A stretch of DNA of 64,000 nt from Candidatus Zhuqueibacterota bacterium (GTDB lineage: Bacteria > Electryoneota > RPQS01): the NCBI GenBank assembly GCA_003818605.1, contig RPQS01000021.1, positions 1 through 64,000 of the forward strand, given 5' to 3'. Under the pieces are notes generated by a model. That model worked only from the letters and a program-made list of their open reading frames with translations. It ran no database searches and was not told the DNA's origin. The stretch's first letter is position 1. Each line of letters starts with the position of its first letter. Shown one piece after another: positions 1,999-59,835 of the stretch. A program made the position numbers and the translations under genes.

Positions 1999-2031
1999 TC
2001 GCCGAGCGTGGGTCGCTGACCCCGCCGGAAT
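1999..2031 (-). repeat. Framed hairpin element (reverse orientation), core CGTGGGTCGCTGACCCCG
   Basis: TCGCCGAG-core-CCGGAAT ends shared with more than ten other loci in the window. Confidence 0.6.
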
Positions 2032-2120
2032 GGGGAATGTTCGCGGCGGCAGGCATCTTGTCCGTCAAAGACGAGATCTCGCTTTGCGGACCTGCCCCGT
2101 GACGCAAACATCGCAAGGTG

Positions 2121-2154
2121 CGCCGAGGCAGATCCCCTGATCTGCCCGGAATCC
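2121..2154 (-). repeat. Framed hairpin element, core GCAGATC-CCCT-GATCTGC
   Basis: CGCCGAG/CCGGAATC ends; reverse complement almost identical to 43823..43854 and 54210..54242. Confidence 0.75.
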
Positions 2155-2163
2155 GAATGACGT

Positions 2164-2208
2164 TCGCCGAGCCGTGGTTAAGGTCTTCCACAACCCGGCC
2201 GGAATCCG
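2164..2208 (-). repeat. Framed hairpin element, core CCGTGGTTAAGGTCTTCCACAACCCGG
   Basis: Near-identical direct copy at 2384..2428. Confidence 0.75.
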
Positions 2209-2240
2209 AAATGGGTGGAATCTTCGGGAGGAATCGAACG

Positions 2241-2318
2241 ATGTCATACCAAGAACTGAATCCCGGCAAAACGACTGACCGTTCCGGTTCCACCACGGAC
2301 GCGAGCAGCAAATCGTAA
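2241..2318 (+). CDS. Possible 25-aa small ORF (MSYQELNPGKTTDRSGSTTDASSKS)
   Basis: ATG preceded by a GGGAGG Shine-Dalgarno-like motif and followed by a hairpin plus T tract; no homology available. Confidence 0.25.
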   Translation: MSYQELNPGKTTDRSGSTTDASSKS

Positions 2319-2330
2319 GCACATACTGAA

Positions 2331-2364
2331 AGGGCGGAAGGATGAAACATTCCTTCCGCCCTTT
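2331..2364 (+). terminator. Rho-independent-type terminator, stem GGGCGGAAGGA/TCCTTCCGCCC
   Basis: agggcggaaggatgaaacattccttccgccctttgt. Confidence 0.7.
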
Positions 2365-2383
2365 GTCATTCAATATCCTGCAT

Positions 2384-2428
2384 TCGCCGAGCCGTGGTTA
2401 AGGTCTTCCGCAACCCGGCCGGAACCGA
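2384..2428 (-). repeat. Framed hairpin element, direct copy of 2164..2208
   Basis: tcgccgagccgtggttaaggtcttccgcaacccggccggaaccg. Confidence 0.75.
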
Positions 2429-2460
2429 TTGGTTAAAACATAAACATTGAGGGCTTAACA

Positions 2461-4308
2461 ATGCGACTCGTAAATGTACGTATCAGAAATTTTCGTTGTT
2501 TCCGCAGGGAAATGAGCATGCCAGTGTCTAAAATAACTGCTATAATTGGACGTAACGATATTGGAAAATCTTCTATTCTTGATGCATTGGATATATTCTT
2601 CAATGATAGTAAAATTGAACAAGAGGATGCGTGCAAATCTGGAGATGCCTCCGATGTGACAATTATCTGCGAGTTTGAAGATATGCCAAGATCACTCATT
2701 ATAGATGCAGACTACGCGACAACCCTCGCTCAGGAACATTTATTGAATCAGAACGGGCGACTGGAAATCCACAAAAAATACAATTGCTCGATCAAGACAA
2801 TCAAGCCTGTTATTTTCGCGTGTGCATACCATCCGACTTCAGTTCAATATGACGATTTGCTAACATTAAAGATTACAGAGTTGAAACAACGTGCACAGGA
2901 CCTTCATGTTGATTTGTCTGAAACTGACAGAAGGGTCGCAACGCTCATTCGGCAGAAAATTTGGCAAAACGCCCCCGACGAATTGATCTTTCAAAATAGA
3001 TTAATTGAAATAAACAGTGAAATTCTCAAAGCGATATACGAACAATTAAAAAAGTGTTTTCCGTGCTTTGCGCTTTTTCGTTCCGATCGTGCAAGCACAG
3101 ACCAAGATGCGGAAGCTCAAGATCCAATGATGCTTGCGGCAAAAGAGGCTGTTGCTGACAAACAGGAGCAACTGACAGAAATATCAAACTATGTCACTAG
3201 CAAAGTAAAGGATATTGCGGACACCACTGTTGAGAAGCTGCGAGAAATGGATCCGTCTCTCGCGCAACAAATGAATCCGAACTGTAAGCCGCCGGAATGG
3301 CATCGGAGTTTCAAATTTAGTTTGACAGACGAGAGCGCAATATCGCTAAATAAGCGCGGTAGCGGCGTGCGACGATTGGTTCTCATTAATTTTTTCAGAG
3401 CCAAGGTAGAAAAACAAGCCGGAGGTTTGAGCAATATAATCTATGCAATTGAAGAACCAGAGACAAGTCAGCATCCTGCGAATCAGAAACTTCTTATGAC
3501 TGTCTTTACTGAATTGACGCAGTATGGACGATGTCAGATTCTGTTAACAACACACACGCCAGTAATGGCGAAGCTGCTGCCAACGGACGCGATACGGTTC
3601 ATTTCAACAGACGGACAGGGTGATCGGGCCATCTACACCAGCGATGACGTAGCACTGGAAAGGGCAACGAAATCTTTAGGCGTGTTGCCTGATCATAATG
3701 TCAGATTGTTTATAGGGGTTGAAGGACCCAATGATATAGAATTCTTGCGAAACATTTCCGGCGTATTAATGCGTGCTGGCGAAAATGTCTGCGATCTTTG
3801 TGATATGGAGAATAGGGGAATGATTATGTTCATTCCCCTCGGTGGCAGCAATGTCCAAAGATGGACCTCGCGTTTAGCTGGCCTAAATATACCTGAGTAC
3901 TACATCTTTGACCGTGATGAGGTTCCGCCACAGCAGCCTCACTACATCAATGAAATGAGCATTATAAACGCGCGACCGAGATGTCAAGCGGTGCATACTA
4001 ACAAAAGGGAAATCGAAAACTACATTCATGCGGATGCAATTAGTAGAGCATTTGGGATCCAAATAAATCCCCCGAGCGATTATGATGATGTTCCTGAAAT
4101 TGTAGCACGCAAGGTGCATGAATTGGCTGGTGGAGATCCATGGGATACACTTGACGACGAAAAAAAAGATAAGAAATGTAAGAATGCCAAAAGAAGACTT
4201 AATCTCGAGGCTGCAAGACTTATGACGCCAAACCTTCTTACGCAGATTGATCCCAATAATGAGATTCGATCTTGGCTTAGTGCGATAAAGCGGTTGATCG
4301 AACAATAA
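2461..4308 (+). CDS. OLD-family AAA ATPase with C-terminal TOPRIM nuclease domain (ATP-dependent endonuclease)
   Basis: Walker A IIGRNDIGKSS; Walker B-like IIYAIEEPETSQHP; TOPRIM motifs GVEGPNDIEFL and YYIFDRDE; KREIENYIH. Confidence 0.88.
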   Translation: MRLVNVRIRNFRCFRREMSMPVSKITAIIGRNDIGKSSILDALDIFFNDSKIEQEDACKSGDASDVTIICEFEDMPRSLIIDADYATTLAQEHLLNQNGRLEIHKKYNCSIKTIKPVIFACAYHPTSVQYDDLLTLKITELKQRAQDLHVDLSETDRRVATLIRQKIWQNAPDELIFQNRLIEINSEILKAIYEQLKKCFPCFALFRSDRASTDQDAEAQDPMMLAAKEAVADKQEQLTEISNYVTSKVKDIADTTVEKLREMDPSLAQQMNPNCKPPEWHRSFKFSLTDESAISLNKRGSGVRRLVLINFFRAKVEKQAGGLSNIIYAIEEPETSQHPANQKLLMTVFTELTQYGRCQILLTTHTPVMAKLLPTDAIRFISTDGQGDRAIYTSDDVALERATKSLGVLPDHNVRLFIGVEGPNDIEFLRNISGVLMRAGENVCDLCDMENRGMIMFIPLGGSNVQRWTSRLAGLNIPEYYIFDRDEVPPQQPHYINEMSIINARPRCQAVHTNKREIENYIHADAISRAFGIQINPPSDYDDVPEIVARKVHELAGGDPWDTLDDEKKDKKCKNAKRRLNLEAARLMTPNLLTQIDPNNEIRSWLSAIKRLIEQ

Positions 4309-4426
4309 CATCATTATCTTGACGACGCGGGCTGGAAGAATCGCCATGGCGCCATTGCGACTCGGGAGAGTCACAACGGCGCATCTGACATGCGCGAGGG
4401 GTGAGGGCACCCTCTCGCGGCGATCA

Positions 4427-4460
4427 GATTCCGGCCGGGTCGGGAGCCCCGGCTCGGCGA
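4427..4460 (+). repeat. Framed hairpin element, core CCGGGTCGGGAGCCCCGG
   Basis: gattccgg-ccgggtcgggagccccgg-ctcggcga; same core family as 43041..43074. Confidence 0.75.
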
Positions 4461-4550
4461 TAATTAATTTATTAGCGGCGGCCTCCGGCCGCCCGAGCAA
4501 TTGAAGGCAGGCAGAGCCTGCCAATAGTTAATAATGTAAATACCGTTGTT

Positions 4551-4642
4551 GATTCCGGCCCGCCTTTGGTCCGCCTCCGGCGAGATCTCGCTTCGCGGAC
4601 GAGGTCTCGTGTTACGGACGGGATCACAGATCCCGCTCGGCG
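4551..4642 (+). repeat. Composite framed hairpin element with several inner palindromes
   Basis: Begins gattccgg and ends ctcggcga; contains CGAGATCTCG and GGGATCacaGATCCC palindromes. Confidence 0.6.
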
Positions 4643-4687
4643 AAAATGTCCCCCCCTTTCATCCCCCCGCATGCGGGGGGAAACAAA

Positions 4688-4716
4688 ACGGCGGAAGGAG
4701 CAATCCTTCCGCCGTT
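4688..4716. terminator. Hairpin terminator ACGGCGGAAGGA/TCCTTCCGCCGT
   Basis: Same stem sequence as the hairpins at 2331..2364 and 9740..9771. Confidence 0.55.
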
Positions 4717-4762
4717 ATCTTTTCCCTCCATTCCATGGGGGGAATTTAAGGGGGGTTCACCG

Positions 4763-6559
4763 TTATCGCATCAGCACCATCTTGCGGGTGGCGGAGAAGT
4801 CGCTGGTCGTGAGTTTGTAAATGTACGCACCCGACGGCAGACCGGAAGCATCGAACTTCACTTCCTGACGACCCGCGGCATACACGCCGTTCAGAATCGT
4901 CATCACTTCCTGCCCCATCATGTTGTAGAGCGCAATCACGGCCGAGCCGCTCTCCTTCAGATCGAACACAATAGTGGTGGAAGCGTTGAACGGATTCGGA
5001 TAGTTCTGATGCAGCGCGTACTCGTTCACAACCTCAACCGCAGCATACGGGGTGGCCGAAGCCGCAGCTATTTCCACACGTCCGCCGTTCACATCCACCG
5101 CCGCGAGCTTATAGTCGTACGCAATGCCGCTTTGCAGACCTTCATCCGTAAAGCTATACACGTGGCCGGTGGCACCGTTGCCCTGCGTCGGCACATGCGT
5201 AATGACCGCATCATTGCGCAGAATCTCGAAGTAATCGTTGTCGGTTTCGGAAGCGGTCTCCCATCTCAAAGCTACGCTGTTCGCTCCCGCCGCAGCGGTA
5301 AACGAAGCCAACTCCACCGCCAACTGATACTCGCGGAAGTAGTAATCTTCCACTTCACCGAGGTCATCCACGCCATACGTTCCCGGGCATTGCTGCGGTA
5401 ATCCCAGACCAAAGCCCAACGGCCCGATAGCCACACTGGTCAGACGGAAACGGAACCAACCCGCATAGGGCGGCACATTCATTAAGCCTGGATCTATAAA
5501 CGGACACGGCACCGCTCCCGGGAAAACAATCTTATCCTGAATGATCCATTCCGAAATCCCGAGACCCGCTGCATTGGGACAGAGCAGATCGCAGAAGTCA
5601 CCGTCATTATTGCCGTCCTTCCAGCCATTGAGAAAGAGCGGCATGCCCGTTTGATAATTCGGTCCGGCAGTAACCAGAACCGTTACCGTAGTCGGTTGGC
5701 ACGGCCACATGTTGGGCGGGAAAATTACACCGTCATCGAACGGATCAATGTCAAACGTATTTGGCGCGGGTTCGCCCGTGATATTCGGACCGAGCCACGC
5801 CACATTGGTCAGCAGATGGCCGGGATTCGCCACAAGGGTTGGATATCCCTGAGGATTATTGAGCGGGTGAATGATGTCGCCCATGTCCATTTCGCCTTCC
5901 TTTGTCAGGCAAAAAGCCACATCGTCTCCCCGCCCTATCAGCTCGCCGTTAGCAAGCAGTTGGAACAGAGTATCGTCGCCCATCGGCGATCCCATCCAGT
6001 AAAACAGACAGTTGGGAGTGCCGGGAGTTCCCCCGCTCGAACGTTGAACGGACACCCAGCCATGAGTCAAATTGCAGCACGGATTCAAGACTGCACTCCA
6101 ATAGTAAAGCGCCCAACCCGACCAGTACCCCACCAATTGACCGTTCAACCACATTAAGTAGCTGCAAGCGGTTTGACCAATGCTGTGATCCGTATTCTCA
6201 TGATAGAAAGTGATGTCGAACTGCGTCGGATCTTCACCGCAGTTTATGTATTCTCCATCGTTGTCAACGTTGAGTAGGAGTCCCCAAAAATGGATGTCGC
6301 ATGTGGAATCCTCGAGGCCCCAGAAATTATCATACGTCACGGTAAAAGCCGAGGCGTCGCTGAGATAGCCGACAAACGCTGCGTTCGGCGCATACGGCGG
6401 CTGCGAATAAATGGTGTTGCTGGGGCAAATTACCGGCCCGGTTGCGACCGACCGATCGGGATCGGGTGTCGTCATGATAAAAACAGACGGATCAATGTCA
6501 GCCAGCGCCAAGCTGCAGAGCGCTGCAAGAGCGAAGCAAACCACTAAAAGTTTCTTCAT
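4763..6559 (-). CDS. Secreted protein with T9SS type A C-terminal sorting domain
   Basis: Signal peptide MKKLLVVCFALAALCSLALA; C-term NYPNPFNASTTIVFDL...SGAYIYKLTTSDFSATRKMVLMR. Confidence 0.85.
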   Translation of the reverse strand: MKKLLVVCFALAALCSLALADIDPSVFIMTTPDPDRSVATGPVICPSNTIYSQPPYAPNAAFVGYLSDASAFTVTYDNFWGLEDSTCDIHFWGLLLNVDNDGEYINCGEDPTQFDITFYHENTDHSIGQTACSYLMWLNGQLVGYWSGWALYYWSAVLNPCCNLTHGWVSVQRSSGGTPGTPNCLFYWMGSPMGDDTLFQLLANGELIGRGDDVAFCLTKEGEMDMGDIIHPLNNPQGYPTLVANPGHLLTNVAWLGPNITGEPAPNTFDIDPFDDGVIFPPNMWPCQPTTVTVLVTAGPNYQTGMPLFLNGWKDGNNDGDFCDLLCPNAAGLGISEWIIQDKIVFPGAVPCPFIDPGLMNVPPYAGWFRFRLTSVAIGPLGFGLGLPQQCPGTYGVDDLGEVEDYYFREYQLAVELASFTAAAGANSVALRWETASETDNDYFEILRNDAVITHVPTQGNGATGHVYSFTDEGLQSGIAYDYKLAAVDVNGGRVEIAAASATPYAAVEVVNEYALHQNYPNPFNASTTIVFDLKESGSAVIALYNMMGQEVMTILNGVYAAGRQEVKFDASGLPSGAYIYKLTTSDFSATRKMVLMR

Positions 6560-7124
6560 GGTCGTTCTTCCTTTCACTATATGGTAAGCATTGGAGGCGA
6601 TGACGGAGTAGTATTCTTATCGGATGTGCTTGCGTGGCGGGGGCGGGGGGATGCGTGGATCGTGGCTGCCGCACGGATATAAGTAACAGCCGACCGTGCG
6701 GGGAATCAACAGAGTCTGTCAAACGCAATATTTTTCTCAGGCCGGAGTCATATTTACTATGCTCTCTAAGCTTATATCACATGCTGCAATATTATTGTGC
6801 AACTTATCACATCGCTAACTGGTCGAGAATCGGCGGGATAGCGGCTTCATCAGGAAAAAACCTGATTTCGCGATTTCTGTATTCTTGGTGTTTTCTCCGC
6901 TTTCAGCTTTTCCACTTTCCGCTTTTAGCCCATATTGCAACCTGTTTGCCTCTTGTTCCGTCTTATTCAGTAGACCGGCAACGATTTATGCGAAAATCCT
7001 TTCTTTTTTTATCTATGACTGTATAAATAAGTTATTTCCCAAGAATACTTTAGCCGACACCTCGCCGTTTCTCCTGCACTAAGATATCGCACGATAGATT
7101 CTCCTTCACGCAAAGGTGAAAGAC

Positions 7125-9570: not shown

Positions 9571-9693
9571 GGGGGGTGATGTTTTTCCTTCTTCTTCCGC
9601 ACTGCATCTGTGATCCGAATATACACGGTGGTCATAGCCTCCCGACGCCGTGGATATCGAAAGGGGTGAACCGCGCGTTCACCCCTGTTTTTT

Positions 9694-9726
9694 CCGCCGA
9701 GGAGGGTCATTAGACCCTCCCGGAAC
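9694..9726 (-). repeat. Framed hairpin element, core GAGGGTC-ATTA-GACCCTC
   Basis: ccgccgag-gagggtcattagaccctc-ccggaac. Confidence 0.65.
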
Positions 9727-9739
9727 CAGTGTAAGAAGA

Positions 9740-21548: not shown

Positions 21549-21582
21549 AAACGCGCGGGGTAAGGACACCCCGCGCGGCGAG
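21549..21582 (+). repeat. Hairpin module AACGCGCGGGGTAAGGACACCCCGCGCGGCGA
   Basis: Nearly identical to 43859..43892; related to 4392..4423. Confidence 0.65.
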
Positions 21583-23017: not shown

Positions 23018-23059
23018 AGTTCCGGCCGGGTTGCGAAGACTTAACCCGGCTCGGCGATC
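23018..23059 (+). repeat. Framed hairpin element, core CCGGGTTGCGAAGACTTAACCCGG
   Basis: cagttccgg-ccgggttgcgaagacttaacccgg-ctcggcga. Confidence 0.75.
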
Positions 23060-25358: not shown

Positions 25359-25419
25359 GATTCCGGCCGGGTTGCGACCAACACCCATAAGGGTGTTGGC
25401 TATTTAACCCGGCTCGGCA
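25359..25419 (+). repeat. Nested framed hairpin element: frame / CCGGGTT..AACCCGG / CCAACACCC..GGGTGTTGG
   Basis: gattccggccgggttgcgaccaacacccataagggtgttggctatttaacccggctcggc. Confidence 0.85.
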
Positions 25420-29470: not shown

Positions 29471-32125
29471 TCACTTCTCCCTATTTGAAGTTTGTTTGTC
29501 TTGCGCTATAAGAGTCTGCACTTGATTGCGGAGCACCGTCAGTTCCTTTTGCATTTCCTGATTCTGTTTGACGAGTTCCTGAATGGCCGCCAGCGCAATG
29601 CCGTCGGGATCAATGGTAGAAATGCCGAGGCTGTCTTCGCCGAGATGGAATGCCGCATAGAAATCTTGAGCCATCGGGCCGATGTGCTCGATGGAGGGAT
29701 CCTGCGCTTTATAGCTCCACTGCTTGATGGGAAGGGCTGTCACTTTTTCCAGAATCGAGCGCGTATCTACCAAGCGGATGTTGCGTTTTTTCGTGCTGTC
29801 AGATACGCCCACCCACGCGCTGGAACCAGCGGTCATTTTCATCCCGGAAGTTTTCGCCGCGTTGGTATAGAAATAGACGCCGCCGCTGGCGCGAACCACG
29901 AACAGATTATTCAACCATGCGGCACAGGTGTCGTTGGTTTGGTCCGCCCAGACGAAAGAGCCGTTGCCGTAGGCCTGTGCTTTTCGCCCGGCGGCAAAGG
30001 AGTACTCGCCCGTAGCATCGTTGTATTGTCCGCCGGGAATGGCAGCATACAAACCCGTGGCATTGTTGTCGTAGCCGCCCCCCACGGTTGCGCCGTAAGC
30101 GGTCGCGTCATTGTTGCCGCCGCCGGCAACCGTCGAATTGATCGCTGTGGCGCTGTTGTTGTAGCCACCGGCAATGGTAGCGTAGTTAGTATCCGCCACA
30201 TTGGAATAGCCGCCGCCGACAGTGGTGTATGAAAAATCCGTTTGATTGTCGTAGCCGCCGCTAATGACGTTATGGCTGCCGTTGGTCTCGTTGGAGTAAC
30301 CGCCGCCGATTACGGAGCCAGCCGCCGTGGTGGTGTTGCGGCGACCGCCGCCGATGAAAGAGTAGTCTCCCTGCGCGCTGTTGGAGTCTAAGTTTGACGC
30401 ACTGCCGCCGCCGCAAACGACTGCGTAGTCTCCGCGCGCACGGTTGTAGTACCCGCCTCCGACGAACGATTGCCACCCCCTCGCTTCGTTCTGGTAACCT
30501 CCTCCGATGAAGGCACCTTGACCGGCCGCGCGATTACGGTACCCGCCGCCAATCGCAGCGTAGCCTGTTGAGGCGACGTGTCCCGAGCCGCCGCCGATGA
30601 AGGAGTAGGGGGCGCTGGCGGAGTTCGAGTCAATGGCGTCGGACCCGCCGCCGCCCGCGACGGTGGCAAAGTAGCCCGCCTTATTATTTGTGCCGCCGCA
30701 CACAACAGCTCCCACGTCCCACGCTTGGTTGGACTGTCCGCCACCGACAAAGGCATCCTGACCGGCGACCCTGTTGCCTTGTCCGCCGCAGATCGCCGCG
30801 AACTGGCCGCTGGCTTCGTTGCTGGTTCCACCGGCTATCGTGGACGTCCAACCGATGGCTGCGTTGTTGTGACCACCGCCCACGACGGTGTAGAGATTAG
30901 CCGCGCGGTTATTTATGCCTCCGCCGATCGAGCTGTGCGTACTACTGGCTACGTTCTGCTGGCCGCCCGCCACGACCGCATAGGCGGCTCCGGCTGTGTC
31001 GGTCAGTCCTCCGCCGACAAACGAGTAGCTGCCGTACGCATAGTTTTGTTCACCACCGGCAACGATTCCAGCTTGTCCGAACACGCTGTTGTCTCTTCCG
31101 CCGCCGATGGTTCCGGCGATGCCGCCGACGCTGTTCATAGTTCCGCCGCCGATGGCGGAATAGGCTCTCCCTGCACCGTTGAGCGTGCCGCCGGCTATCG
31201 TGCTGGCGGTATCGGACGCCTCGTTGTACCAGCCGCCGGAGACTACACTATAGTCCGACCCTCCGGGAATCCAGTTGCGACGCCCTCCCCCGATAAAGCC
31301 GTACATGCTCTCGATGTAGCTCGAGTCCTCGGGATTGGGACCGCTGCCGCCCGCAATGGTGGAATAGGGACCGTAAACCTTGTTGTAGATCCCGCCCCCG
31401 ATCGTCGAGGCATAACCGAAGGCTGTGTTGTTTTCGCCTCCGGCGATGGTGGCGATGGGGCCCTGTGTCATATTGAAGATACCACCACCGATGGTACCGC
31501 GATACGATTGAACCGTGTTGTTGGCGCCCCCGCCGATCGTTCCATGGTTGTCCAGAACCTGATTCGCCGTGCCACCGCTTACGGTCGTGTACTGGGCATC
31601 GGCGTGGTTCCCTACGCCTCCGCCCACGGTGGAGTAATCACCGTTTGCCTGACTGTAGAATCCCGCCACATTAGCATAGCTGCCCGGATTCACGTTGCTA
31701 TCCCCGACATTCAGCTTACCACTAATCGTACCGCCGGTGGACCCATCCACCGTCCCGACGCGGTAGGCATAAGGCACCGATGCGAAGCGGACACGCGGTA
31801 CCATTTCCGTGTTCGAGCCGACTGTAATTCCGAGATAGCGCGATGTCTCGGTGAAAGAATCCGGTAACGCGAGGACGGATCCCAGCAGAACTCCGAATAG
31901 TCCCGCGCGTACCGTGCACGATGGTTGTGTTTCCGTCCACAATGCGATCCCGCCTGACGAGTTTTGGTACAGGCGAAAGGTCATAGACACCGTTGTGTCC
32001 AGCGGGGAACCGTCCGATGCTGTTAAAAAACCTTGATAATTGATCTGGCCGGGGACCGCAGCCGCCGGCACGCTTCCCGCACTCAGCAAGAAAAGGCAAA
32101 TGGTAAAGCAAAGAAACGAACGCAT
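29471..32125 (-). CDS. Giant surface protein: GGG-N-A-G head repeats plus C-terminal Peptidase_S74 domain (copy 3)
   Basis: INYQGFLTASDGSPLDTTVSMTF N-domain; tens of GGGxxNxAxGxYxTVxGG repeats; VSDSTKKRNIRLVDTRSILEKV...IGPMAQDFYAAF. Confidence 0.85.
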   Translation of the reverse strand: MRSFLCFTICLFLLSAGSVPAAAVPGQINYQGFLTASDGSPLDTTVSMTFRLYQNSSGGIALWTETQPSCTVRAGLFGVLLGSVLALPDSFTETSRYLGITVGSNTEMVPRVRFASVPYAYRVGTVDGSTGGTISGKLNVGDSNVNPGSYANVAGFYSQANGDYSTVGGGVGNHADAQYTTVSGGTANQVLDNHGTIGGGANNTVQSYRGTIGGGIFNMTQGPIATIAGGENNTAFGYASTIGGGIYNKVYGPYSTIAGGSGPNPEDSSYIESMYGFIGGGRRNWIPGGSDYSVVSGGWYNEASDTASTIAGGTLNGAGRAYSAIGGGTMNSVGGIAGTIGGGRDNSVFGQAGIVAGGEQNYAYGSYSFVGGGLTDTAGAAYAVVAGGQQNVASSTHSSIGGGINNRAANLYTVVGGGHNNAAIGWTSTIAGGTSNEASGQFAAICGGQGNRVAGQDAFVGGGQSNQAWDVGAVVCGGTNNKAGYFATVAGGGGSDAIDSNSASAPYSFIGGGSGHVASTGYAAIGGGYRNRAAGQGAFIGGGYQNEARGWQSFVGGGYYNRARGDYAVVCGGGSASNLDSNSAQGDYSFIGGGRRNTTTAAGSVIGGGYSNETNGSHNVISGGYDNQTDFSYTTVGGGYSNVADTNYATIAGGYNNSATAINSTVAGGGNNDATAYGATVGGGYDNNATGLYAAIPGGQYNDATGEYSFAAGRKAQAYGNGSFVWADQTNDTCAAWLNNLFVVRASGGVYFYTNAAKTSGMKMTAGSSAWVGVSDSTKKRNIRLVDTRSILEKVTALPIKQWSYKAQDPSIEHIGPMAQDFYAAFHLGEDSLGISTIDPDGIALAAIQELVKQNQEMQKELTVLRNQVQTLIAQDKQTSNREK

Positions 32126-32151
32126 GATATGGCTCCTTTTAAATGCCGTCC

Positions 32152-34356
32152 TTACGGCTTCTTCATAGCAACCGGCTCTGTGGACGAGCCGCCTCGACTG
32201 ACTAATTGCCGCATTTGCGTTTCGAGCTGTGCCATGCGTATTTCCAGCGCGGCGTTCTGCTCGCGAAGTTCTTTATTTTGTTTTTGCAGTTCCTGAATGG
32301 CCGCCAGAGCGATGCCGTCGGGATCAATGGTGGAAATCCCGAGGCTGTCTTCACCGAGACGGAATGCCGCATAGAAATCCTGCGCCATGGGGCCGATGTG
32401 ACGGATGGTTGGATCGGGCTGTGCTTTATAGCGCCACTCACTGATGGGAAGCTGCGCGACTTTCTCCAGCACGGTTTTCGTATCTACCCGACGAATGTCG
32501 GTTTTCTTCGTGCTGTCGGAAATGGCGACCCATGCGGTGGCTGCAGTGGGCAACTTCGCGCCGACAGTTGCTGCGGCATTGGTGTAGAGCTTGTATCCGC
32601 CTGATGCGCGAGCATTAAAACTGTTGATCGAGTCCGCAGGAATCGCGAAGACATTACTGGTACCATCGGCCCACACGAACTGACCGGTTCCCGCAGCATT
32701 GGCCTGGCGACCTGCCGCGAAGGAGTAGTTTCCGTCGGCAAAGTTGCTTTCGCCGCCGGGAACCATGCTGTACTTCCCGCCCGCGTGATTGTCAAAACCG
32801 CCGCTGACCGTACTATAGGAATTGCCCGCGCTGTTTTCGTCGCCTCCGGAAACGACAGCGCATAAGCCGCTGACGAAATTGCTGAAGCCGCCGCTGATCA
32901 CAGATTGTTCTCCGGTTGCATAATTCCCGTAGCCACCGCCGATCACCGATTCTTGCCCGGCAGCCCGATTTCCATGTCCGCCGCCGACCGTTGAGTAAGC
33001 GCCGATAGCCGAATTGGAATCATCTTCGATGGCTCCACCTCCGCCGCTAACCGTTGAGTACTCACCGCGGGCACGGTTAAATCCTCCTCCGCTAACCACA
33101 GCACCGAAGGAATGAGCCGAGTTCATAATTCCGCCGCCAATAGAGTATCCCACACCGCTGGCCGTGTTCAATTGTCCTCCGCTGATCGTAGCCCAGGCAT
33201 CCGAGGCGGCATTGGACTGACCGCCGCCGATGCTCGTGTACTGGTGGGCAGCGACGTTCTGCTTGCCGCCGCAAATCGCCGAGTATGCAGACATCGCCTG
33301 ATTGCTTTCACCCGCTCCCACAAAGGCAACATCGGACTCCGCCCTGTTTCCATAACCTCCGGCGATGGCGGAATACCATCCGGATCCAAGGTTGCGTGTT
33401 CCTCCGCCCACAAACGACCAGTTGGCACTCGCGGAATTGGAGTCAGTCAGAGTCGGACCGCCTCCGCCTGCGACGACGGAAAAGTCGCCGCGCGCGCGAT
33501 TGCTACGGCCGCTGCCGACTGAACTGTATAATCCAGTGGCTGTATTGTTATAGCCGCCGCCAATAGTTGAGGCGGTGCCGGAGGCGATGTTAACAGCGCC
33601 GCCGGCTACCGTGGCATACATGTTGGAGGCCTCATTCCACGAGCCACCGCTCACGATTGTATAAGCATTCGAAGCGCGATTATGGAGACCTCCCACTACG
33701 GCTGAGTGAATTCCATCAGCCATATTCTGGGAACCGCCGCCAACAAATGAATTCATTCCAATAGCGGAATTGGAATCGGTGCGCAACATACCCCCGCCGC
33801 CGCAGACAATCGAGTAATCTCCATAGGCGCGGTTATATCTGCCGCCTGTTATGCTGGCATGAGTGCCCGCTGCCGCGTTGCTCGATCCTACCACGATAGA
33901 ATTCAAGGGGGGGGGACTGTTTGGGCCTCCGACATTGAGACCATACGGGACATTAAGAATACTATAGATCGTTCCACCCCAAGCGCCATCCACCGACCTG
34001 ACACGATAGGCATACGGCACCGAAACGAAGCGTGTGCGGGGAGCCATTTCGCTGTTCGAACCAACCGTCACACCCAACCACACTTGTGCAAGGTGAAAGC
34101 TGTCGGGCACAGCCGAGACCGAGCCTAACAGCACGTTGAACACCCCCGCCCGCACGGTGCAGGACGGTTGAGTTTCCGTCCACAATTGCGTGCCGCCGCT
34201 ACTCGCATTATACATCTTGAACGACATGGACACCACCGTATCCAGCGGCGCGCCTGACGGATCAGTCAAGAATCCCTGATAGTTGATTAGCGATGGAGTT
34301 TCGGCAAAGACGCTCGCGGCAAAAAACGCAAACATACCCATAAGAAAATTTCGCAT
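32152..34356 (-). CDS. Giant surface protein: head repeats plus Peptidase_S74 domain (copy 2)
   Basis: Same architecture: INYQGFLTDPSGAPLDTVVSMSF ... ISDSTKKTDIRRVDTKTVLEKV ... IGPMAQDFYAAF. Confidence 0.85.
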   Translation of the reverse strand: MRNFLMGMFAFFAASVFAETPSLINYQGFLTDPSGAPLDTVVSMSFKMYNASSGGTQLWTETQPSCTVRAGVFNVLLGSVSAVPDSFHLAQVWLGVTVGSNSEMAPRTRFVSVPYAYRVRSVDGAWGGTIYSILNVPYGLNVGGPNSPPPLNSIVVGSSNAAAGTHASITGGRYNRAYGDYSIVCGGGGMLRTDSNSAIGMNSFVGGGSQNMADGIHSAVVGGLHNRASNAYTIVSGGSWNEASNMYATVAGGAVNIASGTASTIGGGYNNTATGLYSSVGSGRSNRARGDFSVVAGGGGPTLTDSNSASANWSFVGGGTRNLGSGWYSAIAGGYGNRAESDVAFVGAGESNQAMSAYSAICGGKQNVAAHQYTSIGGGQSNAASDAWATISGGQLNTASGVGYSIGGGIMNSAHSFGAVVSGGGFNRARGEYSTVSGGGGAIEDDSNSAIGAYSTVGGGHGNRAAGQESVIGGGYGNYATGEQSVISGGFSNFVSGLCAVVSGGDENSAGNSYSTVSGGFDNHAGGKYSMVPGGESNFADGNYSFAAGRQANAAGTGQFVWADGTSNVFAIPADSINSFNARASGGYKLYTNAAATVGAKLPTAATAWVAISDSTKKTDIRRVDTKTVLEKVAQLPISEWRYKAQPDPTIRHIGPMAQDFYAAFRLGEDSLGISTIDPDGIALAAIQELQKQNKELREQNAALEIRMAQLETQMRQLVSRGGSSTEPVAMKKP

Positions 34357-34397
34357 GATCGGAATCCCTTTGATTTATGGCGCGACTCTGAACCTGT

Positions 34398-36851
34398 TTA
34401 TCGTTGAGTTTTCTGTTTTCCTGCAAGAAAAGTTTGAACTGCCGAGCGCAGCTCGCGATTTTCCGCCTCCACGCGATCCAGCCGTTTGCATAGCTCCTGA
34501 ATCGCGGCCAGGGCGATACCGTCGGGATCAATGGTGGAAATACCTAAGCTGTCTTCACCGAGGTGGAAAGCAGTCCAAAAATCCTGCGCCATCGGGCCGA
34601 CATGTTCTATGGACGGATCCTGCGCTTTATAGCTCCATTGTTTGATGGGCAAGTTTGCCACTTTATCAAGCACTTGTTTCGTATCCACCAGACGGATGTT
34701 GCGCTTCTTGGTGGAATCGGAAATCGCTACCCACGCGCTGGAACCGGTAGTAAGTTTGGCTCCCGCCGTGCCTGATGTATTGGTGCGGAAATAGAATCCG
34801 CCAGTGGCGCGAGCCACGAATTCGTTGTTGTTCCAGCTCGTTACCGTGTCGTTCGTTTGATCTCCCCACACAAATGAACCATCGCCGTAAGCTTGCGCTT
34901 TGCGTCCGGCGGCGAAGGAATAGTTACCCAAAGTCACATTGTCGCGTCCACCCGGAATCGTAGCATAGCTTCCGCTGCACGAATTATTATACCCACCGCC
35001 GATTGTTGCAGCATAGCCGGAGTCGAGATTGCTGTATCCGCCGCCAATGGTTCCATAGTCGCTGCCGACCGCATTCCCACCGCCGCCGCCGATATTAGAC
35101 CCATAACCGAAAGCCCAATTTCGATATCCGCCGCTGATAACCGAATAATTGCCGCTCGCGCTGTTGGAATCCGTCAATATATCCCCACCGCCGCCGCCGA
35201 CAAATGCGAATTCGCCGCGCGCGCGATTGCGATTGCCGCCACAGATTACAGAGCCGTTTCCGACCGCGTAGTTATAGGCTCCGCCGCCGACAAAGGAATA
35301 AAGTCCTTGAGCAACATCGTTTAGCCCTCCCACCACGGCAGCGTAGTAGCCGACAGCAGAACAAGAATCGGCAGAAGAATTTCCGCCGCCGCCGGCCACC
35401 ACCGAATAATCTCCGCGCGCACGATTGTAGCTGCCGCCGCCAACACAGGAGCGGTTTCCGGATGCGATGTTGTAATAACCGCCGGAGACGGTCGCAGAAT
35501 AACCGGCCGTTTCGTTGTTGTAGCCGCCGCCGATGGTGCAGTTATTAGTATCGGCTTCGTTGGAATATCCTCCGGCGACGGTGGCATAATTGCCAAGAGC
35601 ATCGTTATTGCTTCCGCCGCCAACGGTGGTGTAATCATCCTGTGCGCTGCCGTTGAAACCGCCGGCGATGGTAGACGCATAGCCGTTTGCTGAATTGCTG
35701 TAGCCGCCGGACAGCGTGGCATAGGCATCATCAATATCATTATAGGCACCTCCGCCGAGGAAGGAATAGTTTCCAGTGACGATGTTGGTATAACCGTCAA
35801 CCACCGCACTATAGTTGCTGGGTACTAAATTTTCGGAACCGCCGCCGATGAAAGCATGGTTTCCGGTCGCCGCATTGCCGGTTCCCGATGCGCTATCGCC
35901 GCCGCCCGCTATCACGGAATACGGACCGGTGGCGAAATTCCATCTTCCGCCGCCGATTGTCGCATAGCTGGAATCGGCATGATTGGACCGGCCGCCGCCA
36001 ACCGTTGAGAAAGCACCATGTGCTGTATTCATAAATCCGCCGCTAATCGTCGCGTTCGTGTCGGATGCTGCATTGGAGCTACCGCCGCCAATCGCTGCCG
36101 ACCAACCGGAGGCTTCATTCGATCCACCGCCGCTCACCGTTGCGCTATTCGCCGTGGCGCGATTGTCGTAGCCTCCGCCGACAACCGTTTGGTTGCCGCC
36201 CGCTCGATTCGCAGAGCCGCCTCCGACAAACGCGGATTGACCCGATGCCGAGTTGGAATCGGCATAGAGACCATCACCGCCGCCGCAAACCACCGAATAT
36301 TCACCGCGCGCGAAGTTATAGCGCCCGCCCGCAACGGTGGAATAGGCACCGATTGCCTGATTGCTGTTGCCTGCGACAAACGCATTCGCTCCACTGTTGG
36401 AGTTGCCGATGCCGATATTGGCTTTGTTGGCAATGAACAACTGACTGTTGATGCTGCCGCCATAGGCTCCGTCAACGCTCTGCACGCGATATGCATAAGG
36501 GACTGTTAGGAAACGCGTGCGCGGCGTCATCTCCGTATTCGCGCCGACGGTCACACCCAGCCAGAGGGAATCATTGGAAAAAATGCCATAGTGCAGGAAA
36601 AGGGTTTCACCCAACTGCACGTCAAAGAGTCCGTTCGTGACCTGCACATTATTGTGAGTTTCGCTCCATACACTGGATCCACCTGCCGGCAACGGATAGA
36701 TGCTGAATGCGATGTTCACAAGTGTGTCCAATGGCGAACCGTCGGGGGCGGTTAAGAACCCCTGATAGTTGATTCGGCCGGGAACGGTGGCTGCCGATAG
36801 CATTCCTATAACAAGGAACAGCCATGCAACGATGTAAAAAAAGGTCTTCAT
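34398..36851 (-). CDS. Giant surface protein: head repeats plus Peptidase_S74 domain (copy 1)
   Basis: Same architecture: INYQGFLTAPDGSPLDTLVNIAF ... ISDSTKKRNIRLVDTKQVLDKV ... VGPMAQDFWTAF. Confidence 0.85.
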   Translation of the reverse strand: MKTFFYIVAWLFLVIGMLSAATVPGRINYQGFLTAPDGSPLDTLVNIAFSIYPLPAGGSSVWSETHNNVQVTNGLFDVQLGETLFLHYGIFSNDSLWLGVTVGANTEMTPRTRFLTVPYAYRVQSVDGAYGGSINSQLFIANKANIGIGNSNSGANAFVAGNSNQAIGAYSTVAGGRYNFARGEYSVVCGGGDGLYADSNSASGQSAFVGGGSANRAGGNQTVVGGGYDNRATANSATVSGGGSNEASGWSAAIGGGSSNAASDTNATISGGFMNTAHGAFSTVGGGRSNHADSSYATIGGGRWNFATGPYSVIAGGGDSASGTGNAATGNHAFIGGGSENLVPSNYSAVVDGYTNIVTGNYSFLGGGAYNDIDDAYATLSGGYSNSANGYASTIAGGFNGSAQDDYTTVGGGSNNDALGNYATVAGGYSNEADTNNCTIGGGYNNETAGYSATVSGGYYNIASGNRSCVGGGSYNRARGDYSVVAGGGGNSSADSCSAVGYYAAVVGGLNDVAQGLYSFVGGGAYNYAVGNGSVICGGNRNRARGEFAFVGGGGGDILTDSNSASGNYSVISGGYRNWAFGYGSNIGGGGGNAVGSDYGTIGGGYSNLDSGYAATIGGGYNNSCSGSYATIPGGRDNVTLGNYSFAAGRKAQAYGDGSFVWGDQTNDTVTSWNNNEFVARATGGFYFRTNTSGTAGAKLTTGSSAWVAISDSTKKRNIRLVDTKQVLDKVANLPIKQWSYKAQDPSIEHVGPMAQDFWTAFHLGEDSLGISTIDPDGIALAAIQELCKRLDRVEAENRELRSAVQTFLAGKQKTQR

Positions 36852-41025: not shown

Positions 41026-41089
41026 GATTCCGGCGGGGTTGTGACCAACACCCAGAGGGTGTTGGCTAGTGATATCCCGGCTCGGCGAT
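41026..41089 (+). repeat. Nested framed hairpin element, same inner module as 25359..25419
   Basis: gattccggcggggttgtgaccaacacccagagggtgttggctagtgatatcccggctcggcgat. Confidence 0.85.
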
Positions 41090-43040: not shown

Positions 43041-43074
43041 GATTCCGGCCGGGTCAGGAGCCCCGGCTCGGCGA
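43041..43074 (+). repeat. Framed hairpin element, core CCGGGTCAGGAGCCCCGG
   Basis: gattccgg-ccgggtcaggagccccgg-ctcggcga; one core difference from 4427..4460. Confidence 0.8.
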
Positions 43075-43075
43075 G

Positions 43076-43790: not shown

Positions 43791-43822
43791 GATGGACGCT
43801 CCCCGTTCGTTGATATCTGCTG

Positions 43823-43854
43823 GTTCCGGGCAGATCGGGGGATCTGCCTCGGCG
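43823..43854 (+). repeat. Framed hairpin element, core GCAGATC-GGGG-GATCTGC
   Basis: gttccgggcagatcgggggatctgcctcggcg; matches 54210..54242 and reverse complement of 2121..2154. Confidence 0.8.
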
Positions 43855-43858
43855 AAAT

Positions 43859-52805: not shown

Positions 52806-52874
52806 GGTTGTCTCCCGAAGATGTCATCGCAGGAACATTCTCATTCACAAGATTCAAAAGTGTATTTATAAACA

Positions 52875-53923: not shown

Positions 53924-54097
53924 GTTGATGCTTGTCCGTTTCGATATTCTATGCTGTTGTTTGTTAAACTCTTCGGATGGGAAGAGAGTTGCCGCACCTT
54001 GCGGTGGTTGCGTCGCGGTTGCATGCGTCCCGCATGCCCCGCGAATGAAAGCAGTTTTTCGCCGCGATGGGTGCCCTCACCCCTCGCGCGGTCTTCA

Positions 54098-54130
54098 GAT
54101 TCCGGCCGCGCGAGGACGCACGGCTCGGCG
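54098..54130 (+). repeat. Framed hairpin element, core CCGCGCGAGGACGCACGG
   Basis: gattccgg-ccgcgcgaggacgcacgg-ctcggcg. Confidence 0.65.
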
Positions 54131-54209
54131 CACCTTGCGGTGGTTGCGTTGCGGCGGTCGGCGACCTCCGCCAAGTACGTCATTTCATCATTAATCGTCA
54201 ATCAACTCA

Positions 54210-54242
54210 GATTCCGGGCAGATCGGGGGATCTGCCTCGGCG
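54210..54242 (+). repeat. Framed hairpin element, core GCAGATC-GGGG-GATCTGC
   Basis: gattccgggcagatcgggggatctgcctcggcg. Confidence 0.8.
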
Positions 54243-54280
54243 GAACGACGGCCGGAGGCCGCCGCCAGTGATATTATTCG

Positions 54281-55595
<1,315 letters not shown>

Positions 55596-55608
55596 GTATG
55601 CCCTTTCT

Positions 55609-56460
55609 TTACAGCGAATCGCGAACGAAAATCCGCACCGGATAGCGTTCGCGCAAAGATGTGATCAAGGAATCCTGCCGCGCGCGGCTCTGCTCGAATA
55701 GAAGCCTGGCAACAATTTCTTCGCGCACGACGGACAAATCAAGAACCGTTCCCGCCGGATACGTTTCCAACAGCCGCACGATGCGAAAGCCGTCCTCATA
55801 CGGACGCGGAAACGTGGCTTCTCCCGGCTTCATGCTGGACAATTCCCGTTCCAGATCGTGATCCAGCTCCCGGCTTTCCGCCAGCCATTTGCCCTCGGCG
55901 GTCACGTCGCCCGCCGCCACCATCGAAGTGTCACCGCGCTGAATTTGATCGCGAAAACGCGCCATGATGTTCTGGTGTTCCGCCCAGAACAATTCGATTT
56001 GATATGCATCCACAGGACGCAGAAACTCTCCGCGATGATTCTCATAATATCGCTCCACGGCGGAATCCGCGGGCGGATCGGCGGGAAGTTCGGATAAAAG
56101 CAACGAGGAAAAAAGTTCCGCGCGCATCTCATGCAGCTTCAGAGCAACATCCGGCCTTTTCTCTAAATCGCGCTTTTCGCCCTCCAACTCCATCAGCGTC
56201 CGCTCGATCCAATTCTCAATCGAGCGCCATCGTTCGAAACGATGAAGTGAATCGGGGTGCGCTCCGCACAATTCCTGAAAATCTTTCTTCGTCAGTTCGC
56301 GCGAGCCCACTTGTGCCAGCACGTTGCCGCCGTCATCTTTTTTACCGCGGCAGCCTGCGGCCCCCGCACTTAGAAGAATCGGCAAGAGGAGAATCCAACC
56401 GTACCGCGCCATTCTCTGCAGACCGAAAAACGATGTCATCGTCCCTCCTTTATCGGTCAC
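55609..56460 (-). CDS. Peptidylprolyl isomerase-like lipoprotein
   Basis: Lipobox-like LLSAGAAGC; VGSRELTKKDFQELCG; PGEATFPRPYEDGFRIVRLLETYPAG. Confidence 0.7.
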   Translation of the reverse strand: MTDKGGTMTSFFGLQRMARYGWILLLPILLSAGAAGCRGKKDDGGNVLAQVGSRELTKKDFQELCGAHPDSLHRFERWRSIENWIERTLMELEGEKRDLEKRPDVALKLHEMRAELFSSLLLSELPADPPADSAVERYYENHRGEFLRPVDAYQIELFWAEHQNIMARFRDQIQRGDTSMVAAGDVTAEGKWLAESRELDHDLERELSSMKPGEATFPRPYEDGFRIVRLLETYPAGTVLDLSVVREEIVARLLFEQSRARQDSLITSLRERYPVRIFVRDSL

Positions 56461-58196
56461 GGTTCACGGGCAATTTTGTCCTCTTTCTTCTCGGTGATCG
56501 GCCACACGGCGGCCAACGCCTTTGCGTCTATGTCCAGGGAGAATTTCTGCAACGCTTCTTCTTCGAGCGTCTTGCGGCGTTCATCGGTCATTGTCTGCCG
56601 CGTTTGCCGGCGGACGTCCGCCTGCGCTTCATCGAAGCTCTTCGTGCGTGACGGCAGAACGTTCAGCAATTGAATGACCGAATAGTTCGTGCCGACCGCC
56701 AACACGTCGGAAATATCTCCGACATTTTTCAGCATGAACGCCGTTTTCCCGATGAAACCGAACCGCTTTTCCTCAAACGGCCCAATGCGTCCCGTATCCG
56801 GCTTGGTGGATTCCTTCTCGTTGTAGCGTAATGCCAGCTTCGCGAAGTTTTCTCCCTTCAGAGCGCGGGTGCGAATTCCCGCCGCTTTTAGCGAATCCTC
56901 TTTGATGAAGATCTCGCGGACGACGCGCGTTTCCGGCTGAATGAAATTGGCCAAATGCGATTCGTAAAAACGTTTCTCGTCCGCTTCAGTGGGACTGACT
57001 TTGTCCGTGATTTCTTCCTTTTCCAGCATGGCGGTTATCGCGCGGCGTTTTTCCGCCACGACTTCCGGACTCTTGAGCGCCGTTTTGTAGAATCCCTGCT
57101 TTTCGGCGTCCTTCTCCAAGAGAATCGGCTCTGCGATGGCGTGCACCAAATCAAGAACGGCTTGCTTATCGTTCCAGTTCACGCGGCCGGCATTCCCCGC
57201 CACTTTTTGGATCAGCTCGTTGAGTGTAACTTTTCCGCCTTTATATGTGGCCACGGTCAGCGCTTTCTGATCTTCCGTGAACATCGGACTCAGCGATTGT
57301 GTCTGGCTGATGGTTGGATCCAGCAGTCTCTTGCGGAACACGTCCATGTTTTTTTCGTCATAAGTCAGTTTCGCCGCCTTGCGCAGCGACTCCACATAGG
57401 CGCGGGCCACGTCCATCATTTTGCCGCCCTCAACTTCGTGGAGCTGCGACTTGATTTGCTCTTTGCTTTCCGCAAAGGATTTTCGGTTGGCAATGGGACG
57501 CCGTTCTTCCACGCGAATCAAATGGTAGCCGTAGTTCGTGCGCACCGGCCCGACCACTTGACCGGGCTTGGCCGACCATGCCGCCTGCTGAAATTCCTCC
57601 ACCATGCGGCCCCATTGGAAAAAGCCGAGATCGCCGGAATCAGCCGCGCTGGTTCCGTCTTCGCTGAACATTTTTGCGGCCGCCTTGAAATCCAATCCGG
57701 CGGCAACGGCTTTCATGATAGAGTCCAACCGCGCTTTGATGCGCGTGGTGTCGGACATGGATGTGTCCGGCGCGGTTTTTAAAAGGATATGCCGCGCGCG
57801 AATTTCTTCGCCGGATTTATCGTAAAACTTTTTCGCGGCATCGTCGGTAATCACTTTTTCCACGACTTGCTTCCTGTAGAGAAGGTCCAGCGCCTTGCGG
57901 CGGGCCGTGGAACTAAGCTGGTCTTTGACCTGCTGCCGCTCGTCTATTTTCTTATCAAGTCCCATTTGGTAGAAGGCCAGATTGACCGACATGTCGCGCA
58001 GGACTTTCTCGCGCACCTGAAACGATTGGCGTTGCGCATTTTCTTCCGTCCGATGACGGCGGATGAATTCATCTTTGAATTCCTGCGACGTAATTTTTTC
58101 CCGTCCGACGCGCGCCACAACGGTTTCGCGTGGGCCGCATCCGATGATCGTCAAAATCATGGCGGCCGCAAGGATTGCCAGCCTGAACTTCTTCAC
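56457..58196 (-). CDS. PpiC/SurA-type peptidylprolyl isomerase lipoprotein
   Basis: IIGC lipobox; IRARHILLKT...SADSGDLGFFQWGRMVEEFQQAAWSAKPGQVVGPVRTNYGYHLIRVEER. Confidence 0.9.
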   Translation of the reverse strand: MKKFRLAILAAAMILTIIGCGPRETVVARVGREKITSQEFKDEFIRRHRTEENAQRQSFQVREKVLRDMSVNLAFYQMGLDKKIDERQQVKDQLSSTARRKALDLLYRKQVVEKVITDDAAKKFYDKSGEEIRARHILLKTAPDTSMSDTTRIKARLDSIMKAVAAGLDFKAAAKMFSEDGTSAADSGDLGFFQWGRMVEEFQQAAWSAKPGQVVGPVRTNYGYHLIRVEERRPIANRKSFAESKEQIKSQLHEVEGGKMMDVARAYVESLRKAAKLTYDEKNMDVFRKRLLDPTISQTQSLSPMFTEDQKALTVATYKGGKVTLNELIQKVAGNAGRVNWNDKQAVLDLVHAIAEPILLEKDAEKQGFYKTALKSPEVVAEKRRAITAMLEKEEITDKVSPTEADEKRFYESHLANFIQPETRVVREIFIKEDSLKAAGIRTRALKGENFAKLALRYNEKESTKPDTGRIGPFEEKRFGFIGKTAFMLKNVGDISDVLAVGTNYSVIQLLNVLPSRTKSFDEAQADVRRQTRQTMTDERRKTLEEEALQKFSLDIDAKALAAVWPITEKKEDKIAREP

Positions 58197-58260
58197 GAGC
58201 CTCTCCTTCGTTGGTTCGGCGGAGACGACGCTCCGTCCTTTGAAATGTATGTGATATTGT

Positions 58261-59775
58261 TTATTGACCCGGGGAATCGTATTTCGCCTGCGCCACCGGC
58301 GTATAAATCCGCATCGGCCTTGTCGGCGCGCCGCTCACCGGCCAGAAGACCGCCGGATCGGTGAACACCGCGAACTTGCGTTCGTACTCGCGAAAATCGT
58401 TCAGCATCACAAAACGATCGTTGTCGGTAAAAACCGCCGCAAACCGTTTTCCCTTCAACGCCTGCTCGATGCTGTTCAGCAGCAGACTTTTCGCCGATTC
58501 GCTGTCGGCGCGTAATATATCATAAATGGGAAGAGCCGAAGCATACATCCGTTTCCCCGCCAGCGAACCCAAGTAGCCATGATGTCCGATCCATACTTCG
58601 CCATCAAATTGACGGATTTTTGTCAGCAGACTTTCTCCCGCGGCGCGATCCGCGTCCGTCGGAAGCTGCTCTTGCGGACGATAATATAAGGATGCGAATT
58701 GTAAAAGGACAGCACCGTAAAGGATCAGTCCGCTCCAGATGGCAATGTGCGCACGAGCCGGTTCATGGGCCGAAATCGCATTTTGTATTTCTTGACTGCG
58801 ACCCTCGAATACCGATGCGGCCAAACCGAACAGCAATGCAAGCAATGCGTAAGCGGGCATAAGATCGTTGGCATAGTTGCCGTCTTTCACGCGCGGCAGC
58901 CAGGCGGCGAGAATCAATCCAACAGTCCACAGCAGATAAAACCAGCGATCTTTGGACTTGTTCCAAATCGTGAACACGAAGAGAACCGCGCCTAAAACGG
59001 CAATGGGCAGCGGACGGAAAAGATCATGCAGCCAGAATTCAGCAAAAGCCTGACCGATCAGCGAATGCCCGGCAGGCATTTCAAACACGTAAAACAAAAA
59101 CCAGCCGTCCGTCGCGGCATTTAAGACGATGTAAGGAAATCCGATTAAAACAGCCAGTGATCCACTCAGCCATAAACCATGTTCCTTACGCTTCCAAATC
59201 CCATATGCAAAGAGCAGAAGCGCGGGCACAAGTGCCGTCTGTTTGGTCATCACGGCCAGCGCGGCGAGCAAGGCTGTTAATATGTATCCGGCTCGGGTCG
59301 CGTGGAATCGCATCACATACATACCCGCGAGCAGAAAAAACAGGAAGAGTGAATCTACGCGCGCCAAATCGAACCACGCTCCGCCCAGACGATAGATTGC
59401 CGCGAACAATCCGGCGGCAAGCAATCCCGACCATATCTTTCCCGATTCCCGTTTCACAAAAGAAAAGAGGATCGCCATACACCCCAAGGAAGCAAGCAAG
59501 GAGATGATCCGCAACGGGAGGAAACCGATGCCCGTTATAAAGGACGCGGCCGCTCCGATCCAATAATAGAGCGGAGGATAAATAGCCGGAACCCAGTCCA
59601 CCGATGGCGCAACATACAGCGGCTGCCCATTCATTACGCGCTGCACATGATCCACCATGCTGCCTTCCTGCCACTCGAGTTCGAACGGATACCCGATGCG
59701 CAGAACGGCCAGAACTACGTACAGCAGAATGTATGCGGCAGGCAAAATGAATGCTAAGATGCGAAATGGTTTCAT
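58261..59775 (-). CDS. Multi-TM glycosyltransferase (family 39/PMT-like)
   Basis: YPFELEWQEGSMVDHVQRVMNGQPLYVAPSVDWVPAIYPPLYYWIGA; multi-TM. Confidence 0.75.
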   Translation of the reverse strand: MKPFRILAFILPAAYILLYVVLAVLRIGYPFELEWQEGSMVDHVQRVMNGQPLYVAPSVDWVPAIYPPLYYWIGAAASFITGIGFLPLRIISLLASLGCMAILFSFVKRESGKIWSGLLAAGLFAAIYRLGGAWFDLARVDSLFLFFLLAGMYVMRFHATRAGYILTALLAALAVMTKQTALVPALLLFAYGIWKRKEHGLWLSGSLAVLIGFPYIVLNAATDGWFLFYVFEMPAGHSLIGQAFAEFWLHDLFRPLPIAVLGAVLFVFTIWNKSKDRWFYLLWTVGLILAAWLPRVKDGNYANDLMPAYALLALLFGLAASVFEGRSQEIQNAISAHEPARAHIAIWSGLILYGAVLLQFASLYYRPQEQLPTDADRAAGESLLTKIRQFDGEVWIGHHGYLGSLAGKRMYASALPIYDILRADSESAKSLLLNSIEQALKGKRFAAVFTDNDRFVMLNDFREYERKFAVFTDPAVFWPVSGAPTRPMRIYTPVAQAKYDSPGQ

Positions 59776-59802
59776 CTGTTCTTTGTCATCGAAGTCTCTT
59801 TT

Positions 59803-59835
59803 CCGCCGAGGCACGCGTCCCCGCGTGCCCGGAAT
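59803..59835 (-). repeat. Framed hairpin element, core GCACGCG-TCCC-CGCGTGC
   Basis: ccgccgag-gcacgcgtccccgcgtgc-ccggaat, between mfd stop and next gene. Confidence 0.7.

What the first reader, a model, noticed from the sequence alone, without database searches (positions are those of the whole stretch)
1999..59835. Dispersed intergenic family with constant asymmetric ends and interchangeable hairpin cores
At least 14 intergenic loci share the frame (G)ATTCCGG ... CTCGGCG(A), in either orientation: 1999, 2121, 2164, 2384, 4427, 4551, 9694, 23018, 25359, 41026, 43041, 43823, 54098, 54210 and 59803. The sequence between the ends is usually an inverted repeat, but a different one by locus: GCAGATC/GATCTGC, GCACGCG/CGCGTGC, GAGGGTC/GACCCTC, CCGGGTC../..CCCGG, GGGTC/GACCC. 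Ordinary REP/BIME families keep the stem and vary the loop. Here the flanks are conserved and the stem is swapped with its complementarity kept. That suggests a mobilised or recombining palindrome cassette or an RNA-level constraint (inference). No transposase-like gene was seen in the window.
Basis: partly seen in the sequence, partly recalled or inferred. Interest (0 to 1): 0.8.

Follow-up and report, generated by a model that had tools for sequence, protein, structure and literature searches.

The report
GATT-headed REP elements with matching transposases
The scattered hairpins are small repeats (REPs) apparently spread by transposases of the bacterium's own genome; each transposase gene carries its own stem on both sides while the hairpin's foot stays fixed, so the swapped stems are ordinary REP subfamilies with a foot not described before.

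Summary
The frame GATTCCGG-stem-loop-stem'-CTCGGCG occurs 157 times in the 3.2 Mb genome (reversed-pattern control 4), and 50-230 times in several relatives. Arms pair 92% (65% after shuffling 3' arms). The hairpin is a constant 3-bp lower stem with a one-base T bulge plus a variable 7-9 bp upper stem. Most perfectly paired stems connect by single compensatory steps, so stems drift in subfamilies rather than being swapped at random.

The explanation is REP/RAYT biology; no transposase lies in this window, but the genome carries at least four NCBIfam-grade REP-associated tyrosine transposases. One RAYT clade (27 genes in this and related genomes) sits between inverted copies of this hairpin type, gene by gene with its own stem. 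Two stems tested genome-wide occur only where their RAYT is: 37 copies in one genome and 0 in twelve; 18 and 7 copies in the two genomes with that RAYT and 0 in eleven. Several copies are missing from orthologous intergenic sites.

The premise that REPs keep their stem is wrong; published REP classes vary it. New here: a GATT head instead of GTAG or CGTC, heterotypic head-to-tail clusters instead of inverted pairs, and one orthologous site carrying three stems. New variant of a known kind.

The parts
1998..2032 (-). element, stem CGGGGTC/GACCCACG (imperfect)
2119..2153 (-). element, stem GCAGATC/GATCTGC, most abundant subfamily in this genome
2163..2206 (-). element, long CCGGGTTG subfamily
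   Evidence: same subfamily flanks RAYT L093 (G000:C137)
2383..2426 (-). element, long CCGGGTTG subfamily
4427..4461 (+). element, stem CCGGGTC/GCCCCGG
4551..4584 (+). degenerate copy (CTCCGGCG foot, stem lost)
9693..9727 (-). element, stem GAGGGTC/GACCCTC
21554..21580 (+). variant element (CGCGGCG foot), stem CGCGGGGT/ACCCCGCG; identical copies flank RAYT L035 in this genome and L131 in G008
23018..23058 (+). element, long CCGGGTTG/AACCCGG subfamily
25359..25419 (+). long copy with a second hairpin CCAACACCC/GGGTGTTGG in the loop
   Evidence: sequence print
41026..41087 (+). long copy with the same inner hairpin
43041..43075 (+). element, stem CCGGGTC/GCCCCGG
43822..43856 (+). element, stem GCAGATC/GATCTGC
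54098..54132 (+). element, stem CCGCGCG/CGCACGG
   Evidence: no element with this stem in the aligned gap of G003
54210..54244 (+). element, stem GCAGATC/GATCTGC, head-to-tail with the previous one
59802..59836 (-). element, stem GCACGCG/CGCGTGC; same intergenic site occupied in G003 and G009 with other stems

Best explanation
A family of REP elements: mostly 31-40 nt imperfect palindromes with an unpaired 5' GATT head, a fixed 3-bp lower stem (CCG/CGG) with a one-base T bulge on the 3' side, a variable 7-9 bp upper stem and a 3-8 nt loop. They are non-autonomous elements spread by a lineage-specific clade of REP-associated tyrosine (HUH/Y1) transposases. Each RAYT gene of that clade lies typically between two inverted copies with heads facing the gene. 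Shown: the pairing, the RAYTs, the gene-by-gene match of flanking stems, genome-wide amplification of two stems only where their RAYT is present, and presence/absence differences between species. Inferred: the RAYT binds the single-stranded hairpin by its head, lower stem and bulge (as E. coli TnpA-REP does), so the foot is held constant while the upper stem only has to pair. A RAYT mainly copies the stems beside it, so when the stem beside a RAYT drifts by a compensated step, a new subfamily is seeded across the genome.
For: 157 copies against 4 control. Pairing above shuffles. Fold ....(((((((((((....)))))))).))).... for several stems. Four G000 genes pass NCBIfam REP_Tyr_transpos; the best PDB relative of the clade is TnpA-REP 4er8, E=8.6e-8. 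Of 27 RAYTs of the clade (SH-aLRT 99), 11 have a frame element within 150 bp, 7 on both sides, against 1 of 20 other RAYTs (Fisher p=0.007). 24 elements lie in these flanks and 7 in 56.6 kb of the rest of the loci; 20 of 24 have heads inward. Different RAYTs carry different stems: CAGGGAAGG (L116), CCGGGTT (L093, L117, L121), GCAGATC (L097), CAGGGTC (L099), GCGGACG (L126). Stem CAGGGAAGGAATCCCTG: 37 copies in G002, which has that RAYT, 0 in 12 relatives. Stem CGCGGGGTAAGGACACCCCGCGCGGCG: 18 in G008 and 7 in G000, the two genomes with that RAYT, 0 in 11 others. RAYT count of the clade correlates with frame copies over 13 genomes, rho 0.72, p 0.005; the RAYT-free genome G007 has 7 copies. Copies absent at orthologous sites in G001/G003.
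Against: Abundant stems of this genome (GCAGATC, CAGGGTC, GAGGGTC) have no resident RAYT detected with exactly that stem on both sides; lost genes, assembly gaps (93% complete, 253 contigs) or mobilisation in trans could explain it. G003 has 51 copies without a detected RAYT of this clade. No transposition, binding or cleavage was observed. The published GTAG head is missing. The correlation over 13 genomes does not correct for relatedness, and the clade counts were assigned by hand from the tree.
Confidence: 0.9

Rival explanations
1. The hairpins act at RNA level (3'-end stabilisers or terminators) and the paired stem is kept by selection at each locus.
For: In the window most copies lie at ends of convergent genes (ORF list); stems are strong (mean -17.6 kcal/mol).
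Against: Copies are absent at orthologous sites; many identical copies per stem and a 37-to-0 distribution between genomes point to amplification; copies occur in both orientations relative to genes; no T tract after the foot (flank counts) and no Rfam match. A secondary RNA effect is not excluded.
Confidence: 0.06
2. Recombining cassette: stems are exchanged in place between copies by gene conversion, the frame being the homology.
For: Orthologous site 59804 carries GCACGCG/CGCGTGC (G000), CCGGGCG/CGCCCGG (G009) and a mosaic CCGGGCG/CGCGTGC (G003); some other copies combine arms of two subfamilies.
Against: Only one orthologous site of this kind; most arm mismatches are single substitutions; the frame (6-8 nt each side) is very short for homologous recombination; independent insertion or point mutation in the same site remains possible.
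Confidence: 0.12
3. Chance: a G+C-rich frame expected from composition.
For: Some loose-pattern hits lie inside genes and lack stems.
Against: 157 against 4 control hits; pairing far above shuffles.
Confidence: 0.005

Closest known systems
GTAG REPs and RAYTs (E. coli REP/TnpA-REP; Stenotrophomonas SMAG; Pseudomonas REP classes)
   Same: 20-40 nt imperfect palindrome with unpaired 5' head; over 100 copies; constant head with stems that change by class; RAYT gene between inverted copies; match of RAYT and stem (PMC2817692, PMC3686654); bulged stem as in E. coli REP (PMC8266576)
   Different: head is GATT (79 of 116) rather than GT[AG]G; clusters mostly head-to-tail with different stems rather than inverted pairs (REPIN/BIME); RAYTs of a separate clade
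CGTC repeats (Di Nocera et al. 2013, PMC3733652)
   Same: short tagged palindromes
   Different: different tag; CGTC repeats are reported without a dedicated transposase, here there is one
TIRtrons/TIRYTs (PMC3733652)
   Same: RAYT-like genes between inverted repeats not carrying GTAG, some self-complementary; the reported motif GGGGWSAS fits GGGGTCAG of one stem here
REPINs (PMC3116915)
   Same: RAYT-dispersed, extragenic
   Different: REPIN unit is an inverted doublet (93% of SBW25 doublets); here 28 of 34 close pairs are in the same orientation

Membership tests
REP elements mobilised by RAYTs | 20-40 nt (imperfect) palindrome, many copies per genome | tested here: met
   31-40 nt, 157 copies
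REP elements mobilised by RAYTs | extragenic location | tested here: inconclusive
   window copies lie between the main ORFs; by a crude ORF caller 60 of 105 copies lie outside ORFs that cover 88% of the sequence
REP elements mobilised by RAYTs | RAYT gene flanked by two inverted copies | tested here: met
   7 RAYTs of the clade with frame copies on both sides, heads inward in 20 of 24 flanking copies
REP elements mobilised by RAYTs | copy number depends on the cognate RAYT | tested here: met
   two stems tested, 37/0 and 25/0; abundant stems without detected cognate also exist
REP elements mobilised by RAYTs | single-strand cleavage by the RAYT | not testable with these tools
   needs biochemistry
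GTAG REP superfamily | GT[AG]G next to the palindrome | tested here: not met
   head GATT in 79 of 116, none GTAG
CGTC REP superfamily | CGTC tag | tested here: not met
   feet CGGA/CGAA/CGCA and the like, no CGTC among those listed
REPIN/BIME | neighbouring units in alternating or inverted orientation | tested here: not met
   28 same, 6 opposite of 34 pairs within 250 bp, binomial p=0.0002
NCBIfam REP_Tyr_transpos (RAYT) | score above curated cut-off | tested here: met
   four G000 proteins 80.5-101.5 bits against 80

The most novel reading that the evidence does not exclude
Besides transposition, upper stems are rewritten in place: an inserted copy keeps its head and foot while one arm and then the other is replaced from another subfamily (templated by hairpin folding or gene conversion), as the three stems and the mosaic at the 59804 site suggest.
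Probability: 0.15. Interest if true: 0.65.

Novelty: new variant of a known kind. Interest (0 to 1): 0.47.

Why it matters
It adds a REP type with its own head (GATT) and its own RAYT clade in a barely studied, uncultured lineage. It also gives many closely related natural RAYT/stem pairs with a fixed foot, the material needed to find which RAYT residues read head, bulge and stem, a question tested biochemically in only three model systems in PMC8266576.

Tried and rejected
A single RAYT in genome contigs found nothing; the alignment found relatives. Rfam on the window: nothing. Paralogous empty sites inside other repeats: only one tandem case. The simple ORF caller over-calls ORFs in G+C-rich spacers, so its 'in ORF' count was not relied on. 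L102 first looked like a GCAGATC RAYT; its reading frame runs into a GCGAATC copy, so GCGAATC is its likelier cognate. Attribution of every stem of this genome to a resident RAYT failed.

Full report
Observation. The frame is real and enriched: 17 loose hits in the window against 2.0 expected, and 157 tight hits in the genome against 4 for the reversed pattern. Twelve of the listed loci fit exactly, 4551 is degenerate, and 25359 and 41026 are long copies with an inner hairpin. Two further relatives in the window were missed, 4613-4642 and 21554-21580.

Anatomy. In 116 distinct copies with flanks the two bases before TTCCGG are mostly GA (G 75%, A 82%) and the bases after the foot mostly purine then A, so the unit is GATT-CCG-[upper stem]-loop-[upper stem']-T-CGG-CG-RA. 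It folds as a 3-bp lower stem, a one-base 3' bulge and an 8-bp upper stem. Arms pair 91.6% against 64.7% for shuffled arms. Of 14 perfectly paired stems, nine form one network of single compensatory steps (GCAGATC-GCGGATC-GCGGGTC-GAGGGTC-CAGGGTC-CAGGATC-CGGGATC and neighbours). Stems are therefore drifting subfamilies, several with many identical copies.

Transposases. The genome has Y1 transposase genes. Four pass the NCBIfam RAYT cut-off, and ten RAYT-family matches were counted. A tree of 47 RAYTs from this family and order shows one clade of 27 most of whose members sit between hairpins of this architecture, usually inverted. Within it a subclade of nine (SH-aLRT 98) carries a foot with G instead of T as bulge (GCCGCCGCG/GCCGCGGCG). 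RAYTs of other clades in the same genomes carry GTAG-headed or CTAG-tailed repeats. By exact criteria 11 of 27 against 1 of 20 RAYTs have the T-bulge frame within 150 bp, heads inward in 20 of 24 copies.

Stem and RAYT go together. The stem beside RAYT L116 occurs 37 times in its genome and in none of twelve relatives. The stem beside L035 and L131, sister RAYTs in two genera, occurs 7 and 18 times in those two genomes and in none of eleven others. The only genome of the thirteen without any RAYT match, G007 (98% complete), has 7 frame hits.

Mobility. In syntenic stretches of G001 and G003, own copies at L208:4457, 13450, 16344 and 17751 are missing and the intergenic gap is mostly shorter. 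One site, 59804, is occupied in G000, G003 and G009 (two genera) but with three stems, one of them a mosaic of the other two.

Differences from known REPs. Head GATT rather than GTAG or CGTC (PMC3733652). Close pairs are same-oriented in 28 of 34 cases and carry different stems in 33 of 34, unlike REPINs (PMC3116915). Changing stems behind a constant head is not new: the tables of PMC3686654 show it within orthologous RAYT groups, and PMC2817692 reports RAYT/REP coevolution. No paper on this lineage's repeats was found in the library searched.

Host. Unnamed in the tools. RAYT relatives at 40% identity or more were found only in these MAGs; the next are at most 39%.

Limits. All evidence is sequence comparison. 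Which part of the hairpin each RAYT reads, and whether RAYTs act on foreign stems, is inference.

Noticed in passing
window 29471-36851 (-): Three large paralogous ORFs (884, 734, 817 aa) built of degenerate 45-nt-period repeats (15 aa), next to each other.
   Followed up: no
window 4649, 9761, 15500, 21461, 21587: A second dispersed family with C-tract/G-tract palindromes (TCCCCCC...TTTCATCCCCCCG...GGGGGGAAA), often close to the REP elements.
   Followed up: no
L111 (G000:C220), L092 (G003:C205): Another RAYT clade is flanked by CAGCACGCGGGAGCGTGCTGCCTAGT-type repeats; further RAYTs (L132-L136) have GTAG-headed repeats, so several REP systems coexist.
   Followed up: partly
L036 about 1690-1720 (G000:C73): A GACACGGC/GCCGTGTC palindrome lies in frame inside a RAYT-like ORF, as Rickettsia palindromic elements do.
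   Followed up: no
window 54131-54155; L208 13480-13500, 16375-16400: A conserved linker CACCTTGCGGTGGTTGCGTTGCGG follows several elements and often leads into a second hairpin, a composite unit.
   Followed up: partly
window 59804; L082 3522-3552; L087 248-278: Orthologous site with three different stems in three genomes, one a mosaic.
   Followed up: partly
L209 4088-4119; L221 17052-17083: A 32-nt stretch of another palindrome family (CCCGGTGGTGACTCTCCAGAGTCACCCCTC) is identical at the same intergenic position in two genera whose flanks are 69% identical.
   Followed up: no
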